Part shown: piece by piece, positions 36,019 to 41,827 of the stretch
How the letters are laid out: every line of letters begins with the position of its first letter
Position numbering within the stretch: the first letter of the stretch is position 1
Source: Tilletia caries
Lineage: Eukaryota; Basidiomycota; Exobasidiomycetes; Tilletiales; Tilletiaceae
NCBI GenBank assembly: GCA_032718865.1
Contig: JALUTQ010000027.1
Span: 1-64,000 of the forward strand
Reading direction: 5' to 3'
Length of the DNA stretch: 64,000 nucleotides
The notes under the pieces: model-generated
Database searches by the model: none
What the model was told of the DNA's origin: nothing
What the model saw: the letters and a program-made list of their open reading frames with translations, nothing else
Made by a program: the position numbers and the translations under genes

Positions 36019-36054
36019 GCTGGGAGGGATGCTGAGGTGGAAGCTCCTCGTGGT

Positions 36055-36310
36055 TATGGAGCGCCGAAGTGATCACCTTTTTGATTTGATTTCTGATCTT
36101 GATTCTTGACCACCACACCCACCACACCCACCACCACATCACCTCGCGCGCACATCAAGTTCTCTGCAAGGGTATGTATTACGGTTGCTCTAGGAAACTC
36201 TTCTCCCGGTCTGCTGACATCTCCTTCTCTTCTCTTCTCTTCTCTTCTCTGCTCATCAGTCTGCCACAGTGCCACCGACGACTGTCCTTGGCCTGCTGCT
36301 TGTCCCCGTC
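36055..36310 (+). repeat. Left terminal inverted repeat
   Basis: Mirrors 41477-41732. It contains (TTCTC)n, five units here versus four at the right end, and ends at GGCCTGCTGCTTGTCCCCG, after which the 15-bp subterminal array runs to about 36480. The near identity of the two TIRs suggests recent activity or gene conversion. Confidence 0.9.
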
Positions 36311-36842
36311 GCTCGCCCACCGTCGCTCGTCCCCGCCGTCGCTCGTCCCCGCCGTCGCTCGTCCCCGCCGTCGCTCGTCCCCGCCGTCGCTCGCCCCGCC
36401 GTCGCTCGTCCCGCCGACGCTCGTGCTGCTCGTTGCTCGCCCGGCCGTCGATCGGCCCGCCGTCGCTCGTGCCGCTGCTCGTCCGCCTCGTGCGGCTCTC
36501 AGCCCGCCCTCCGTCCGGACTCGCCCGTCGGCCTCTCGGCTCTCGTCCGCGGTCCGGCTGCTCGTGCGATCCGCCCGTCGCGTCCGTTTGACGCGGCTGT
36601 CGCGTTGCTGTCTTCTTTCTCTGCGGCTGCTCTGGGGGTTTCTGTATTGCGTGAGTATTTATGGCAGCGCGTTCATTCATGAGTGTTTGCTGAATATGAT
36701 TATGTTTCTGTTGATTGATCCGGCTCAGGGCTCTTCACTGTGTGGTTCTGCTCTCCTTCTCGTCTTTCTGGGCAAGCAAGGATCGTCGAAAACGTCGGCC
36801 CTGCTCGCGTGCGCGTCTGGTCAGACTCTTCACACCCTAGCC

Positions 36843-38706
36843 ATGGAAGACGCTGGTTCATCTACACCTCCTGCGCCTCCTCATGTCTCCGCTGCTACCG
36901 ACCCTCTACACTCCACTGAAATACGAGACTTAATCGGTCACACTGCGTCTGCTCTCGCCCCGTTTGAATCATTCATTGCCGATCCCAGCAGAGACGTTAT
37001 GATGATTCCGGCCCATCTGCTCGCCTTACAAGAGCTGATCGACGGTTGGGCTTTGTGCGTCCACCTCCTCTCATCCCCTCAATACGATCCACTCATGCGA
37101 AAAATGCTTTTTGCCCGAGAAGAGCTAGATACGTTGGAGCGGACTATGCCCGAGACGCGGCAGCAGGCATTGTGGGAGCGTACTGCGCGAGGGCAGCTTC
37201 GACTCAACGTCAACACCGACACCCTCTGCGAGCTCGTGGAGCTTCAGTTCACCGACGCAACAATCTCGATAATGTTGGGCGTCTCTGCGATAACTGTGAG
37301 GAGACGGCGGCGCGAACTGGGGCTCGTACGTAGGGGAGACACAATGGTTTCCGACGAGGACTTGATAGCTGTGAGTATGATTCAACCTAGAGACCAGCTA
37401 GTCTTCCATGTTTGCTGACAAACCTTTATGCTCCTGCCTGTCCATCTCGATTCTGCTCGCCTCATCCTCATTTCCTCACCTCTGCTCTGTGCTACTCTAG
37501 GCCATCGAATCTACATATGGGATGGGCATGAGTGTTGGAGAGAGGGGAATGCGCGGTGCGTTACGCGCAGTTGGAGTCAGTGTCAGTCGCGCACGTTTGC
37601 GGCTGGCATTGCAAGCAAACAATCCTCATCGTGTGCAGGCACTCTGGGCGAAAACGACCAAGCGGCGGGATTACTACGTCCCGTTCGTTAACAGTCTCTG
37701 GCACATCGATGGGCATCATAAGCTCATCAAATACAAGATCGTCATACATGGGGGGGTGGATGGGAAGAGTCGGGTGGTCACGTTCATGCGCGCCAACTCA
37801 AACAACCGCGCCGACACCGTCGCCGACTGCTTCCTCGAAGCCACGGAGAGGTGGGGATGGCCGAGTAGGGTCAGGGCTGATCACGGAGGGGAGAATCTGG
37901 AGGTCATGAGGTTGATGGAGGAAGCTCGAGGTGAGATGATGAGGTTTCATGCTGCACTTAACGCGTAGTATGAAGCCAAACTGACGTCGTTCTTATCCAT
38001 TCATCAGGACACAATCGCGGTTCGTTCATTCAGGGTCCTTCGACCCGTAATCAGCGCATCGAGAGGATGTGGGTCGATGTCCAACGATGGACCACGGCCA
38101 AATACAAAGCCCTGTTTCAGGCCATGGAAGAGAGCGAACTTCTCGACGTGAACTGCTCCATTCACTTGTGGTGTCTTCATCTCGTATTTTTGCCGCAACT
38201 CAACAAGGCACTTGATCACTTTCAAGACGTGTGGAACATGCATCCTGTGCGGACAGCGGGCTCCAACTGGAGTCCTCAGCAAATGCACACGGCAGGTCAG
38301 TGAGAAGAGTGGTGTTGGGATTGCAACATACTGAATCATTTTGTGACTTCCAGGTGTTCTGGAAGCCGAGCGCAAGGGTTTCGACCTCCGGACTCGACCT
38401 GCTGTGCTGGAAGAGGAGGAAGCTGCCGAGGATATCAGACAGCACGCTCTGAGAAATTTTGCGGAGTACGGAGACGATGTGGCACGAGAAGGGAGGGAAC
38501 GGCGAGAGAATGATCCTCATGTCGTGCTGGATCCGGTAGAGCGGGATTTGCCGGCGCTGCTACTGGATCCTGCCGTGCGAGAATGGGTCGAGGCGGAAGT
38601 GCCACTGCAGTGGCCTCCTGGTGAAGACATGGGGTTGGGAAGGTACACCAAGGTTTTTGGAGGTTGTTTCCGAATTGCTAGAGGCAGCGGAGGGGCAGGA
38701 AGGTGA
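36843..38706 (+). CDS. Transposon integrase/transposase, rve (DDE) type
   Basis: Four exons (36843-37370, 37501-37930, 38008-38295, 38354-38706), all phase-consistent, give an intact 532-residue protein. A helix-turn-helix is likely at about residues 128-160 (LCELVELQFTDATISIMLGV, SAITVRRRRRELGL). The catalytic core carries D246 (LWHIDGHHKLIKYKIVIHGG), D303 (VRADHGGEN) and E338 (RNQRIERMWVDV), a D-34-E spacing like retroviral-type integrases. NNRADTVADCF and GPSTRNQRIERMW are shared with solitary integrase-core proteins of fungi and animals. The C-terminal part is acidic (VLEEEEAAEDIRQHA). It would cut and join the TIR ends. The frame is open farther upstream into the TIR, but that part encodes repeat sequence, so the ATG before EDAGSSTPP is preferred. 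Confidence 0.88.
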
Positions 38707-38774
38707 AGGTTCAGTGGAACACTCCCACGCGTAGCGTAGAGGCTGAAGTCAACGGGAAGAGAATACCTACCGCA

Positions 38775-41148
38775 TCAATGACGCCGAACAGCCTTCCTAC
38801 CCAGTGTCACACACGCTCCGCACGTCCACAGACAGCCATCTCTGGGACGGTTCTCGTACTGCTTGAGAAGATCCTTTCGGCCGTTCTTGGGCCTGAACAC
38901 CAAGCAGGCCTTGTGATACTAGTTGATGTGGAACAATTGAACTTTCAGTGCAAGAATTACGCGCTGCGCGCAACTCTGGAGCCTGGAGGAGAAGGAAGGA
39001 CTGACCCACTGCTGACACTCGGGAACATCGCACTGAACCCACTGCAAAGGAGAGCAGTAATCCAGAATGTCAACATATGAGTAATCAATCGATCTGCGTG
39101 AATCGTGATGAAGAGAAGAGAACCTCACATCATCAACTGGATCTCCCTCTCCCTCCTCCGCCTCGCTGAAAAGCTCTGGCGCTTGACGGCTGCAGCGCAC
39201 TGGACAAATCTCCAGCATGCCCAGCTTTGAGCTTCCGGCGGTGAAGTTAGGCTGGGCGCGGCGCGCATGTTCTGCCTTCCCCCCTTCCTCACTGCCTCGA
39301 GCCTTTCGCTTCCGTATCTCCGGGCGCGCTCGAGAGGGGATGGAGAGAGGAGGGGTTGAAGTATCCTTCAAATGTAGAGTGTACAGTATCAGTAAAGCAG
39401 AACGAAATGACACGCCACTTTCCTCTCACCTTCCCCATTCGACCCACATCAGAGTCACTCTCGCCGCTCGAAATAGAGATCTGTAGAGAGTGCAGTTTGA
39501 ATCAGCTTTGAGCTTAGGCTGGAACCGTAAAAAGGGAGAAGGAAGTAGCTCACTGCGTCGTCAATAGTATTGTTCATCTCTCCCGACAATCCTGGCTCCT
39601 GCTTCACACTACCTGGTTCGTGTTTGACTTTGTAGTCAGACCGGACACAGGTGTGCTGTGCGAGGACGTGGGGCGGCATACGAACGCGACAATGTTCGCA
39701 CTGGTTCTTGCCTGTCTCTTTGCCTGGCCGAGAACCTGAAGCTGCTGCAGATCCCCCTCCCTCCCATCGCGACCTGTCGAACATGACCTCGAGAGGCGGG
39801 AGGTACGAAGAGGGATGAGCAGCAGGGGGGGTTCATCACGGTTCCCCACCACGTAGGCCTGCTTGCCTGAGTAGATGGCGGCGAGGTCGGCTCCGGTGGG
39901 GAACAGAGGGGCTCCATCTTTGTCCCGTTCTTGCCACAGTCGCAGAGCCGGGGGGGAAGCACTGCACCACCTGATAAATGAGGTAGAGAAGGGTGAATCA
40001 GCAATCCTGACCGACAGCAGCTGAAAGCGTGTTAGTGCAGCTGCTACGTACGTGAAACCCAATGTCTCGATGTCTTTGGCAAACCTCGGGAAAGAGCGAC
40101 GCACAAAATTCCACACGTCATCTGCACTCGAATCAGCAGTCAGATTGGGACTAGTAGCCACGCAGTCCCACCGACCCAGCACCATGTGCAAGTTGGGCGT
40201 GGCGACACGCTGACTGATGGCGCCCGACCAAGGCACGTAGTAGATCTGTGCGTTCGTCGAGCCATAGAACGTAGGTAACATCAGCATAGCTGGTCCCAAA
40301 CAGTGTGTAAAGTGCTGGGGAGGGGAAGAGAATTGGAGAGGTCTTACGAACGCTGTCATTCTTGAGCTTGATCCGATTGAAAGAACCCTGGCGCTGATTG
40401 GTAGCTGAGGCGAACCCCAGCGACGACGCCGCGGAAGACAGGGACGAAGCAGAACGACCACTCGCCCCAATGTTCCGCAGCAGCTGCGCGGCGCGGAAGC
40501 CTGAATTCGTGCTCGCGCGCAGCTGGCTCGGAGCGGAGGAAGACGAGCCGGCAGAGGAAGAGATGGTGGTGAGCCCAGGTCGAGGTCGTAGCGCTGCATG
40601 AGATGAAGAGAGTTTGGGGTTCAGTAGCCTGCCTGTCAATCCATATAGTAGATTGACTATGATATACATACCCTCAACGTGATCTCCTTCCCCCAGTAAC
40701 GTGAGGAGGAACACGAGACGGAAGAGCAGACAAGGGAGAGGGCTGCCCAGTCTGCAGCTGGCGGAGCGACATCAACTCCTGCCGCAGCCCAGTGACCTCC
40801 TGCCGCAGCCCACGAGCATCTTCCGCGGACTGCTTCAAGTATTCGAGCTGGCTTCTGGAGACTGACTGCAACAAACGTACAGTTAAATTTGAAAGGGTCA
40901 GTGCCATAACCCACAGCGAGCACGACGCCGGAGACGCGTTGCTGCTGTGCACTCACCACTCGCGGGCTGATTGATGTAGTGCCGTGCACATGATGCGAAG
41001 GGGCTGTGTGTAGGGAAAGAGGGTTATGAGAAATGAAGGGAGGAGGACAAAATTATTGTTCAGCATTAAGAGCAAGTACGACGGGTTGCCGCCCACCGGT
41101 CACGCCTCTGGTGCCATACTCACAAGGGGATCGTGAGTTCCCCTCCAT
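38775..41148 (-). CDS. Transposon accessory protein with C2HC and CW-type zinc fingers and SUMO-like motifs
   Basis: About ten exons; well-supported ones are 41148-41124, 41003-40957, 40865 to about 40690, 40596-40348, 40289-40053, 39970-39554, 39480-39430, 39365-39129, 39041-39006 and 38909-38775. Order of parts: coiled coil (SQLEYLKQSAEDARGLRQEV), Ser/Ala-rich linker, a conserved-looking core (IYYVPWSGAISQRVATPNLH, SFPRFAKDIETLGFTW), CEHCRVRMPPHVLAQHTC (C2HC finger), two VKxEPG sites, IDDAISISSGESDSD (SUMO-interaction-like), basic stretch, and a C-terminal CW-like finger (WVQCDVPECQQW ... CLWTCGAC). A seven-C run near 39826 puts the frame off by one; one more C would restore it. The junction near 40690 is unresolved. 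It converges with the integrase; a targeting or cofactor role is inferred. Confidence 0.65.
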
Positions 41149-41476
41149 GGTGATGGTAAAGCAGGCGCGACCGAGAAGAGAAACCAGCCCAACGCAGGCC
41201 GATGCAATTAACAGATAGACTGCTAAATGAGAAAAGTGATGGGAAAAGGAGTTGGGAATCAGCGACCATACGTCCAGTGGTAGCGTGCAGACGAATGACA
41301 CTGTTACTCACGCGTGAAAGAACGAGAGGCAGCGTCAGACAAACGAACGAACGAGCGCGGGCGAGCGAGCGACGGCGGGGGCGAGCGCAGGCGGACGACG
41401 AGCGAGCGACGGGCGAGCGCAGGCAGACGACGAGCGCAGGCGGGGACGAGCGGGCGGACGACGAGCGGGCGGACGA

Positions 41477-41732
41477 CGAGCGACGGGGACGAGCAGCAGG
41501 CCAAGGACAGTCGTCGGTGGCACTGTGGCAGACTGATGAGCAGAGAAGAGAAGAGAAGAGAAGGAGATGTCAGCAGACCGGGAGAAGAGTTTCCTAGAGC
41601 AACCGTAATACATACCCTTGCAGAGAACTTGATGTGCGCGCGAGGTGATGTGGTGGTGGGTGTGGTGGGTGTGGTGGCCAAGAATCAAGATCAGAAATCA
41701 AATCAAAAAGGTGATCACTTCGGCGCTCCATA
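41477..41732 (-). repeat. Right terminal inverted repeat
   Basis: Reverse complement of 36055-36310, with a G/A difference at GGCCACCACACC and one fewer TTCTC unit. The adjacent subterminal array (about 41340-41476) uses GACGAGCG-type units in a different arrangement from the left side. Confidence 0.9.
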
Positions 41733-41827
41733 CGTGGTCGAGCGCATCCTTCTCCTTCTCGTTCTGATGAGCTCGTCCTTCTTCTCGACCACATCCTCCA
41801 GCTCAGCTACACACACTGACAGAGAAG

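What the first reader, a model, noticed from the sequence alone, without database searches (positions are those of the whole stretch)
36049..41738. Complete IS3EU-like transposon with two convergent genes
A 5,678-bp element has 6-bp duplications (CGTGGT), about 256-bp near-identical TIRs, an intact 532-residue rve integrase (D246, D303, E338) and a second multi-exon gene. Complete two-gene members of this DDE class are rarely described in fungi. The high TIR identity and intact integrase point to recent or current mobility.
Basis: partly seen in the sequence, partly recalled or inferred. Interest (0 to 1): 0.88.

Follow-up and report, generated by a model that had tools for sequence, protein, structure and literature searches.

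The report
Jumping gene with PHD-finger partner gene
In a wheat-bunt fungus this is a recently mobile DNA transposon of the IS3EU type whose second gene encodes a PHD-finger protein, a type of domain that reads chromatin marks, which suggests how such an element might choose where to land.

Summary
Window 36055-41732 is a 5,678-bp transposon with exact 6-bp duplications, terminal inverted repeats of about 260 bp, a DDE integrase gene and a convergent second gene. Recent mobility is supported. Ends, duplication length and integrase fit IS3EU.

What looks new is the second gene: coiled-coil-like stretch, a core without Pfam match, a CxxC/HxxC finger and a PHD finger (scores just under Pfam's cut-offs). 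Relatives 36-51% identical lie convergently beside diverged integrases: 13 of 15 second-gene places are paired, and 13 of 40 integrase loci carry it. Those integrases group together in a tree (moderate support). It is not the alpha-kinase of rust IS3EU elements. The IS3EU-related Styx element of Zymoseptoria carries other zinc-finger genes, so multi-gene fungal IS3EU elements are known. Six of eight insertions lie within 190 bp upstream of a flanking gene's putative start codon. A RAG1/RAG2-like division of labour is inferred, not shown. The window copy's second gene is broken, so it is probably not autonomous.

The parts
36049..36054 (.). left target-site duplication CGTGGT
   Evidence: exact match to the right copy
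41733..41738 (.). right target-site duplication CGTGGT
36055..36322 (+). left terminal inverted repeat, begins TATGGAGCGCCG
   Evidence: arms 36055-36249 (99%) and 36229-36322 (96%)
41470..41732 (-). right terminal inverted repeat
36172..36259 (+). candidate 5' leader intron inside the left TIR (GTATGT...ATCAG); hypothetical
   Evidence: read from sequence; no RNA data
41533..41615 (-). mirror-image candidate leader intron inside the right TIR; hypothetical
   Evidence: read from sequence; no RNA data
36843..37370 (+). gene 1 (integrase/transposase) exon 1, N-terminal region, helical and HTH-like in the model of relative P0001
   Evidence: splice model; predicted helices
37501..37930 (+). gene 1 exon 2, rva_4 catalytic core with D246 and D303
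   Evidence: Pfam PF24764 E=1.5e-35
38008..38295 (+). gene 1 exon 3, catalytic core with E338
   Evidence: Pfam PF24764 E=3.1e-31 on the enclosing open frame
38354..38706 (+). gene 1 exon 4, C-terminal region (last ~20 residues in another frame than in relatives)
   Evidence: compared with P0001
41124..41148 (-). gene 2 exon 1 (start ATG)
   Evidence: splice model; agrees with T. controversa protein P0100
40957..41003 (-). gene 2 exon 2
40672..40865 (-). gene 2 exon 3, coiled-coil-like stretch (by eye); frame disrupted in the window copy relative to the C6 copy
40348..40593 (-). gene 2 exon 4, serine-rich stretch
40052..40289 (-). gene 2 exon 5, conserved core (QIYYVPW...)
39554..39970 (-). 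gene 2 exon 6, end of core and CxxC/HxLAxHxC finger; frame disrupted in the window copy relative to the C6 copy
39430..39480 (-). gene 2 exon 7, acidic stretch resembling a SUMO-interacting motif (recalled motif, not tested)
39129..39365 (-). gene 2 exon 8, start of PHD finger (one zinc ligand substituted in the window copy)
39006..39041 (-). gene 2 exon 9, PHD finger WVQCDVPECQQW
   Evidence: PF22908 E=2.1e-4, PF00628 E=1.1e-3 over exons 8-10 of the window copy, both under the cut-offs
38775..38918 (-). gene 2 exon 10, end of PHD finger and stop

Best explanation
This is an IS3EU-type cut-and-paste DNA transposon with a two-component apparatus. Gene 1 is an RNase-H-fold DDE transposase that binds and joins the TATGG...CCATA ends to a target with 6-bp staggered cuts. 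Gene 2 is a co-mobilised accessory protein. Most likely its coiled coil or core binds the transposase or the ends, and its PHD finger reads a histone tail (H3K4me3 most likely), tethering the complex to chromatin at gene starts. Shown by sequence: element ends, duplications, catalytic residues, the conserved pairing of the two genes, a PHD-type finger in several families, and a clustering of a small set of insertions near putative start codons. Inferred: physical interaction of the two proteins, H3K4me3 binding, targeting. The window copy is a recent insertion now probably dependent on other copies.
For: Transposon: (four full copies, 4 of 4 with exact 6-bp duplications; four short copies with the same 74-bp ends, 3 of 4 with duplications). 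Divergence 9 of 3824 to 34 of 4447 substituted sites between copies over 36700-41150. DDE residues invariant in 34 homologues. Predicted structure of the T. controversa homologue P0001 (pLDDT 83.7) matches IstA, TnsB and retroviral intasomes. In Styx, an IS3EU-related element, transposition appears non-replicative and degenerate copies are moved by intact ones (PMC10853768, passages). Gene 2 belongs to the element: 13 of 15 gene-2 places in the genome (14, one more) have a convergent integrase 90 bp to 9.0 kb away. A second, diverged family, f963, with 61-bp perfect TIRs and duplication GAGACT, has the same two genes. Integrases with gene 2 form one group in a 34-row tree (10 rows, 1 change, support 86/78, 0 of 500 shuffles as low). 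PHD; solved-structure matches to ALFIN-LIKE 1, DIDO1 and Partner of snf PHD fingers (E 0.005-0.03). Targeting: 6 of 8 insertions lie 36-188 bp upstream of a putative start codon of a flanking gene. Four of those six sites have a flanking gene with a Pfam match over cut-off, one (the window) matches just below cut-off; the m23 gene rests on a long open frame and a recalled transporter likeness.
Against: PHD matches stay under Pfam's gathering score (21-22 against 24 bits). The gene-2 structure model failed (mean pLDDT 37), so the core fold is unknown. 27 of 40 integrase loci show no gene 2, so it is not needed by the superfamily as a whole. Two gene-2 places (C21:613318 and a short N-terminal match at C40:1545134) have no integrase within 15 kb. 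The f554 family has transposed (TIRs and duplication GGTTTC) without a detectable gene 2. The tree rests on 88 columns and its key branch is not strongly supported. Insertions near gene starts could reflect open chromatin or selection rather than PHD binding. The site test has only eight insertions, gene starts placed by eye, and a distance threshold chosen afterwards; one site (m32) also lies 215 bp from a phosphoribosyltransferase exon whose earlier exons were not found, so it may interrupt that gene. No expression data.
Confidence: 0.55

Rival explanations
1. Gene 2 is a transcriptional or anti-silencing factor: its PHD and finger act on the element's own chromatin or on host silencing, much as TET/JBP genes carried by other fungal transposons are thought to, and it has no part in target choice.
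For: Fungal IS3EU elements carry TET/JBP dioxygenase genes thought to aid escape from silencing (PMC12730594, abstract and passages). Both TIRs hold the same candidate leader and intron, so both genes may share one promoter (read).
Against: Six of eight insertions lie close upstream of putative start codons, which this reading does not predict.
Confidence: 0.2
2. Gene 2 is a DNA-binding cofactor of transposition, comparable to the Myb-like second protein of Nuwa/Harbinger elements or to the GATA- and CCHC-motif proteins of Styx, with the CxxC/HxLAxHxC finger binding the terminal repeats; the PHD is incidental.
For: The finger and core are the best conserved parts across families (invariant columns). 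The IS3EU-related Styx element encodes two proteins with putative DNA-binding zinc-finger motifs (PMC10853768, passages); whether they are related to gene 2 was not tested.
Against: Families without gene 2 in the same genome also transposed with similar TATGGAACGCCG ends. PHD ligand spacing persists in families about 30-40% identical.
Confidence: 0.2
3. Gene 2 is a passenger captured by chance.
For: It is missing from 27 of 40 integrase loci.
Against: Its domain order and convergent position are kept in several families whose gene-2 proteins are only about 31-51% identical, which argues for selection over a long time.
Confidence: 0.05

Closest known systems
IS3EU superfamily (Repbase; with GingerRoot), fungal members of Pucciniales and Tuber
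   Same: 6-bp duplications, TAYGG..CCRTA ends, rve-like DDE transposase without an HHCC domain, a second gene in opposite orientation (PMC10045372 and PMC12730594, passages)
   Different: Second gene is a PHD-finger protein, not an alpha-kinase; no TET/JBP gene found in the genome by six-frame HMM (the control genomes also gave nothing, so absence is not proven)
Styx element of Zymoseptoria
   Same: multi-gene fungal element said to derive from a two-protein IS3EU element; TIRs; 6-bp duplication (CATAAG given for one new insertion); accessory proteins with zinc-finger motifs; degenerate copies mobilised in trans (PMC10853768, passages)
   Different: 7.9 kb with four genes; accessory domains reported as GATA, CCHC and DUF3577, no PHD mentioned in the passages seen; sequence not compared here
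RAG1/RAG2 and RAG-like transposons (Transib lineage)
   Same: DDE transposase plus a second protein with a PHD finger in one mobile element; the RAG2 PHD binds H3K4me3 (PMC4411706 and PMC11844651, passages)
   Different: Integrase-type transposase, not Transib/RAG1; 6-bp not 5-bp duplications; no Kelch propeller found in gene 2. No homology claimed
Nuwa lineage of Harbinger elements (transposase plus Myb/SANT protein)
   Same: two-gene element with a DNA-binding second protein (PMC12730594, passage)
   Different: other transposase superfamily, 3-bp duplications, no PHD
Retroviral integrases and chromodomain Gypsy elements (chromodomain tethering recalled, not looked up)
   Same: RNase-H integrase fold; chromatin reader as a possible tether

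Membership tests
IS3EU | 6-bp target-site duplications | tested here: met
   7 of 8 copies with these ends have exact 6-bp duplications (m36 does not); also f963 and f554
IS3EU | TA..TA termini, fungal form TAYGG..CCRTA | tested here: met
   definitions from PMC10045372 and PMC12730594
IS3EU | rve-like DDE transposase without N-terminal HHCC | tested here: met
   no CxxC pair in the first 245 residues (read by eye)
IS3EU | transposase placed in the IS3EU/GingerRoot clade by phylogeny | not tested
Pucciniales-type TET+ IS3EU | alpha-kinase second gene | tested here: not met
   no PF02816 match in gene 2; none in the genome (controls also rang nowhere)
Styx-type IS3EU derivative | accessory proteins with GATA and CCHC motifs and DUF3577 | not tested
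   Styx sequences were not at hand; no such Pfam match in gene 2
PHD finger (gene 2 C-terminus) | C4HC3 ligands with CD..C..WYH..C spacing | tested here: met
   complete in T. laevis relative P0104; matching spacing in the C6 and f963 families, the last CxxC being lost in C6 by a deletion and not read for f963
PHD finger (gene 2 C-terminus) | score over Pfam gathering threshold | tested here: not met
   best 21.1 of 24 bits (PF00628) and 21.9 of 23.9 (PF22908), E 3e-4 and 2e-4
RAG1/RAG2-like element | Transib-type transposase and Kelch-PHD RAG2 | tested here: not met
   transposase is rva_4; no Kelch match in gene 2

The most novel reading that the evidence does not exclude
An independent, RAG1/RAG2-like invention: an integrase-type transposon lineage in bunt fungi split its machinery into a catalytic subunit and a PHD-finger subunit that steers insertion to H3K4me3-marked gene starts, with both genes driven by the same promoter and spliced leader lying inside the terminal repeats.
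Probability: 0.35. Interest if true: 0.8.

Novelty: new variant of a known kind. Interest (0 to 1): 0.57.

Why it matters
How DNA transposons pick targets in chromatin, and why a PHD finger was joined to a transposase on the way to V(D)J recombination, are open questions with few natural comparisons. Here one genome holds sister lineages of the same superfamily with and without a PHD-finger partner, so its effect on target choice can be tested by counting insertions. The second gene also appears unrecognised as a transposon gene: its five database relatives are named unnamed, partial or uncharacterised Tilletia proteins, one of them 'PHD-type domain-containing'.

Tried and rejected
Alpha-kinase or TET/JBP as the second gene: no Pfam match. 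Structure of gene 2: the AlphaFold model on four sequences was useless (pLDDT 37), so no fold search was run on it. Long 12-kb copy on C5 as an element with extra genes: rejected, the extra DNA reads as a Copia-like LTR retrotransposon (recognised by eye from recalled motifs) nested in the copy. Domesticated integrase: rejected for this copy, TIRs and duplications are present. f1802 family ends: not resolved; the BLAST arms do not begin with TATGG and no duplication was seen. Comparing insertion sites with families lacking gene 2: only one-sided flanks of 187-644 bp were at hand, so no fair comparison was made. Paper searches: IS3EU (35 papers listed; four opened for passages); IS3EU with PHD finger (0 papers); alpha-kinase/transposon/IS3EU; PHD finger/transposase; GingerRoot; Tilletia; H3K4me3/RAG2. 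Repbase and Dfam were not available.
Full report
What is there. The element spans 36055-41732 and is flanked by exact CGTGGT duplications. Its terminal inverted repeats of about 260 bp differ by two substitutions and a 5-bp microsatellite gap. The 12-base end occurs only at these two places in the window (8 of 100 shuffles had two or more matches).

Source. The genome has 38.10 Mb in 40 contigs. Its contigs include lengths of 2,689,501 and 1,798,756, the largest contig and N50 reported for T. caries TC1_MSG, assembled from nanopore reads, polished with Illumina reads (46 contigs, 38.18 Mb) and annotated with 10,698 genes (PMC10684912, abstract and passages). I take that as the source. Protein hits agree on Tilletia.

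Gene 1. Four exons (36843-37370, 37501-37930, 38008-38295, 38354-38706) give 532 residues with D246, D303 and E338, a DD35E spacing. The catalytic exons match Pfam rva_4. D246, D303 and E338 are invariant in 34 aligned proteins chosen from 99 hits, from Tilletia, other basidiomycetes and animals. The model of the T. controversa relative P0001 is good (pLDDT 83.7) and matches IstA, TnsB and retroviral intasomes in Foldseek (36 matches at E up to 0.001); TM-scores over the whole chain are low (0.11-0.28 by query length in those rows). Between W and C6, 7 of 511 compared codons differ, 5 silently. The last ~20 residues of the window copy are in another frame than in relatives.

Copies. A TIR search gave 29 matches in the own genome. 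Four full-length copies exist: the window, C6:221498, C5:1271004 and C5:301486. The last has a Copia-like retrotransposon nested in it and has lost about 600 bp. All four have exact 6-bp duplications. Pairwise they differ at 9 of 3824 to 34 of 4447 aligned sites over 36700-41150. Four short elements of 1,146-1,168 bp share the 74 terminal bases (one arm of m36 with one mismatch); m36 is 97-99% identical to the other three. Three of four have exact duplications. The family has thus moved recently, with non-autonomous relatives. In this assembly each of the four full copies has a frame-disrupting difference in at least one of its two genes, but homopolymer errors are possible.

Gene 2. Ten exons on the minus strand (41148 to 38775) were modelled from splice sites. 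Read in the C6 copy, the model is 99% identical to the partial T. controversa protein P0100 over 75% of its length. It reads: coiled-coil-like stretch, serine-rich stretch, conserved core (QIYYVPW...), CxxC/HxLAxHxC finger, acidic stretch, PHD finger. The core has no significant Pfam match. The PHD scores PF22908 E=2e-4 and PF00628 E=1e-3 in window exons 8-10, and PF00628 E=3e-4 in the T. laevis relative P0104, all just under Pfam's gathering scores; P0101 and P0102, shorter gene models, gave no PHD match or a weak one. P0104's best solved-structure matches are PHD fingers of ALFIN-LIKE 1, a PHD finger family protein and DIDO1 (E 0.005 to 0.012). That several of these bind H3K4me3 is recalled.

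Gene 2 is part of the transposon lineage. Searching the genome with gene 2 gave 39 exon matches, merged by hand into 14 places; a search with P0104 (43 matches) added a fifteenth, a short N-terminal match at C40:1545134. Integrase matches (82; 120, where 86 of 127 candidates were scored) were merged by hand into 40 loci. 13 of the 15 gene-2 places have an integrase pointing at them, 90 bp to 9.0 kb away, and 13 of 40 integrase loci have such a gene. The exceptions are C21:613318 and C40:1545134. A diverged family, f963 (C5:962496-967905, 5,410 bp, perfect 61-bp TIRs, duplication GAGACT), has the same two genes with core, finger and the PHD start; its gene 2 also seems to lose frame after the finger. 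In a tree of 34 rows (27 genome loci, 7 database proteins, 88 columns) the 10 gene-2 rows form one group: support 86/78, 82% of 200 bootstrap trees, 0 of 500 shuffles as low; near-identical rows inflate the last figure, and 15 of 28 inner branches are open. Three gene-2 loci without a usable fetched exon were left out. Protein searches found gene-2 relatives only in Tilletia (1; 5, with about 8,000 candidates scored each time), while the integrase is widespread (99 hits).

Sister elements without gene 2. The f554 family (C36:546650-555746, 9.1 kb, duplication GGTTTC) has related TATGGAACGCCG ends. Gene-2 searches found nothing there, and the seven open frames of 120 aa or more in the 6.1 kb fetched did not look like gene 2.

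Insertion sites. Eight insertions with these ends were examined (four full, four short). The window copy lies in a gap of about 125 bp between two divergent genes: a ZW10-like gene (start about 36 bp from the element; Pfam E=0.0013, below cut-off) and a tRNA pseudouridine synthase-like gene (about 95 bp; E=4.7e-4, below cut-off). Others: Tudor-knot (MYST-like) gene 45 bp; NAD-epimerase-type gene 85 bp; potassium-transporter-like gene (recalled likeness, no Pfam match) 144 bp; aminotransferase gene 158 bp; malate synthase gene about 188 bp (first exon placed by eye; the other side of this site has a phosphoribosyltransferase exon from 215 bp whose earlier exons were not found); an unnamed Cys-rich open frame 469 bp; and m36, which lies beside a MULE transposase. 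So 6 of 8 are within 190 bp. With 10,698 genes in 38.18 Mb, 5.3% of positions would qualify; the chance of 6 or more of 8 is 6e-7, or 1.2e-4 if only 40% of the genome tolerates insertions. With a looser 500-bp rule the chance of 6 or more of 8 is 1.6e-4, or 0.025 under the 40% guess. The threshold was chosen after seeing the data and starts were placed by eye. Two f963 flanks also open into long outward frames with an ATG within roughly 130 and 550 bp, while the third flank looked at shows none (not verified).

Mechanism. The simplest reading is a two-part machine: integrase for cutting and joining, PHD protein for chromatin. It recalls RAG1/RAG2, where the RAG2 PHD binds H3K4me3 and both recruits the recombinase and restrains transposition (PMC11844651, abstract and passages), and where both genes are argued to come from one transposon (PMC4411706, passages). 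The same preprint says that the PHD is absent from RAG2L of ProtoRAG, so the parallel is with PHD-bearing RAG2 only. No homology between the two systems is claimed. Interaction, histone binding and targeting are all inferred.

Membership. IS3EU: ends, duplication length and transposase type met; placement by phylogeny not tested. The alpha-kinase partner of rust IS3EU elements (PMC12730594) is not present. Styx of Zymoseptoria shows that IS3EU-derived fungal elements can carry accessory zinc-finger genes (GATA, CCHC) (PMC10853768, passages); relation to gene 2 was not tested. No paper in the held library has both IS3EU and PHD finger; closed-access work and Repbase reports were not searched.

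Noticed in passing
L015 392-1541, L014 379-1524, L016 400-1546, L017 399-1566: Short non-autonomous family (about 1.15 kb, about 104-bp inverted ends) sharing 74 terminal bases with the element; the interior gave no match to it.
   Followed up: partly
L011-L013 (C5:301486-313537): Copia-like LTR retrotransposon nested in one full-length copy, with loss of about 600 bp of the second gene.
   Followed up: partly
L075 and L026 (C36:546650-555746): 9.1-kb IS3EU-like element with duplication GGTTTC and no recognisable second gene; TIR pairs suggest several more at 5-11 kb and a 2.0-kb non-autonomous set (C7:1645949, C25:1112420, C32:652891, C32:678530).
   Followed up: partly
L018-L022 (C32, C28, C7, C1, C36): A repeat with one end TATGGAGCGCCGAATGAATTCG and a W-like end about 1.5 kb in, beside the same CT-rich flank in the five copies seen; not independent insertions.
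   Followed up: no
window 36316-36470: Minisatellite of 15-16-bp units (CCCGCCGTCGCTCGT) next to the left TIR; this region varies in length between copies.
   Followed up: no
window 36172-36259 and 41533-41615: Both TIRs carry the same candidate intron, so both genes may start with an identical promoter and spliced leader.
   Followed up: no
G000:C21:613318-614191 and G000:C40:1545134-1545289: Second-gene relatives without an integrase within 15 kb; possible orphans or remnants.
   Followed up: no
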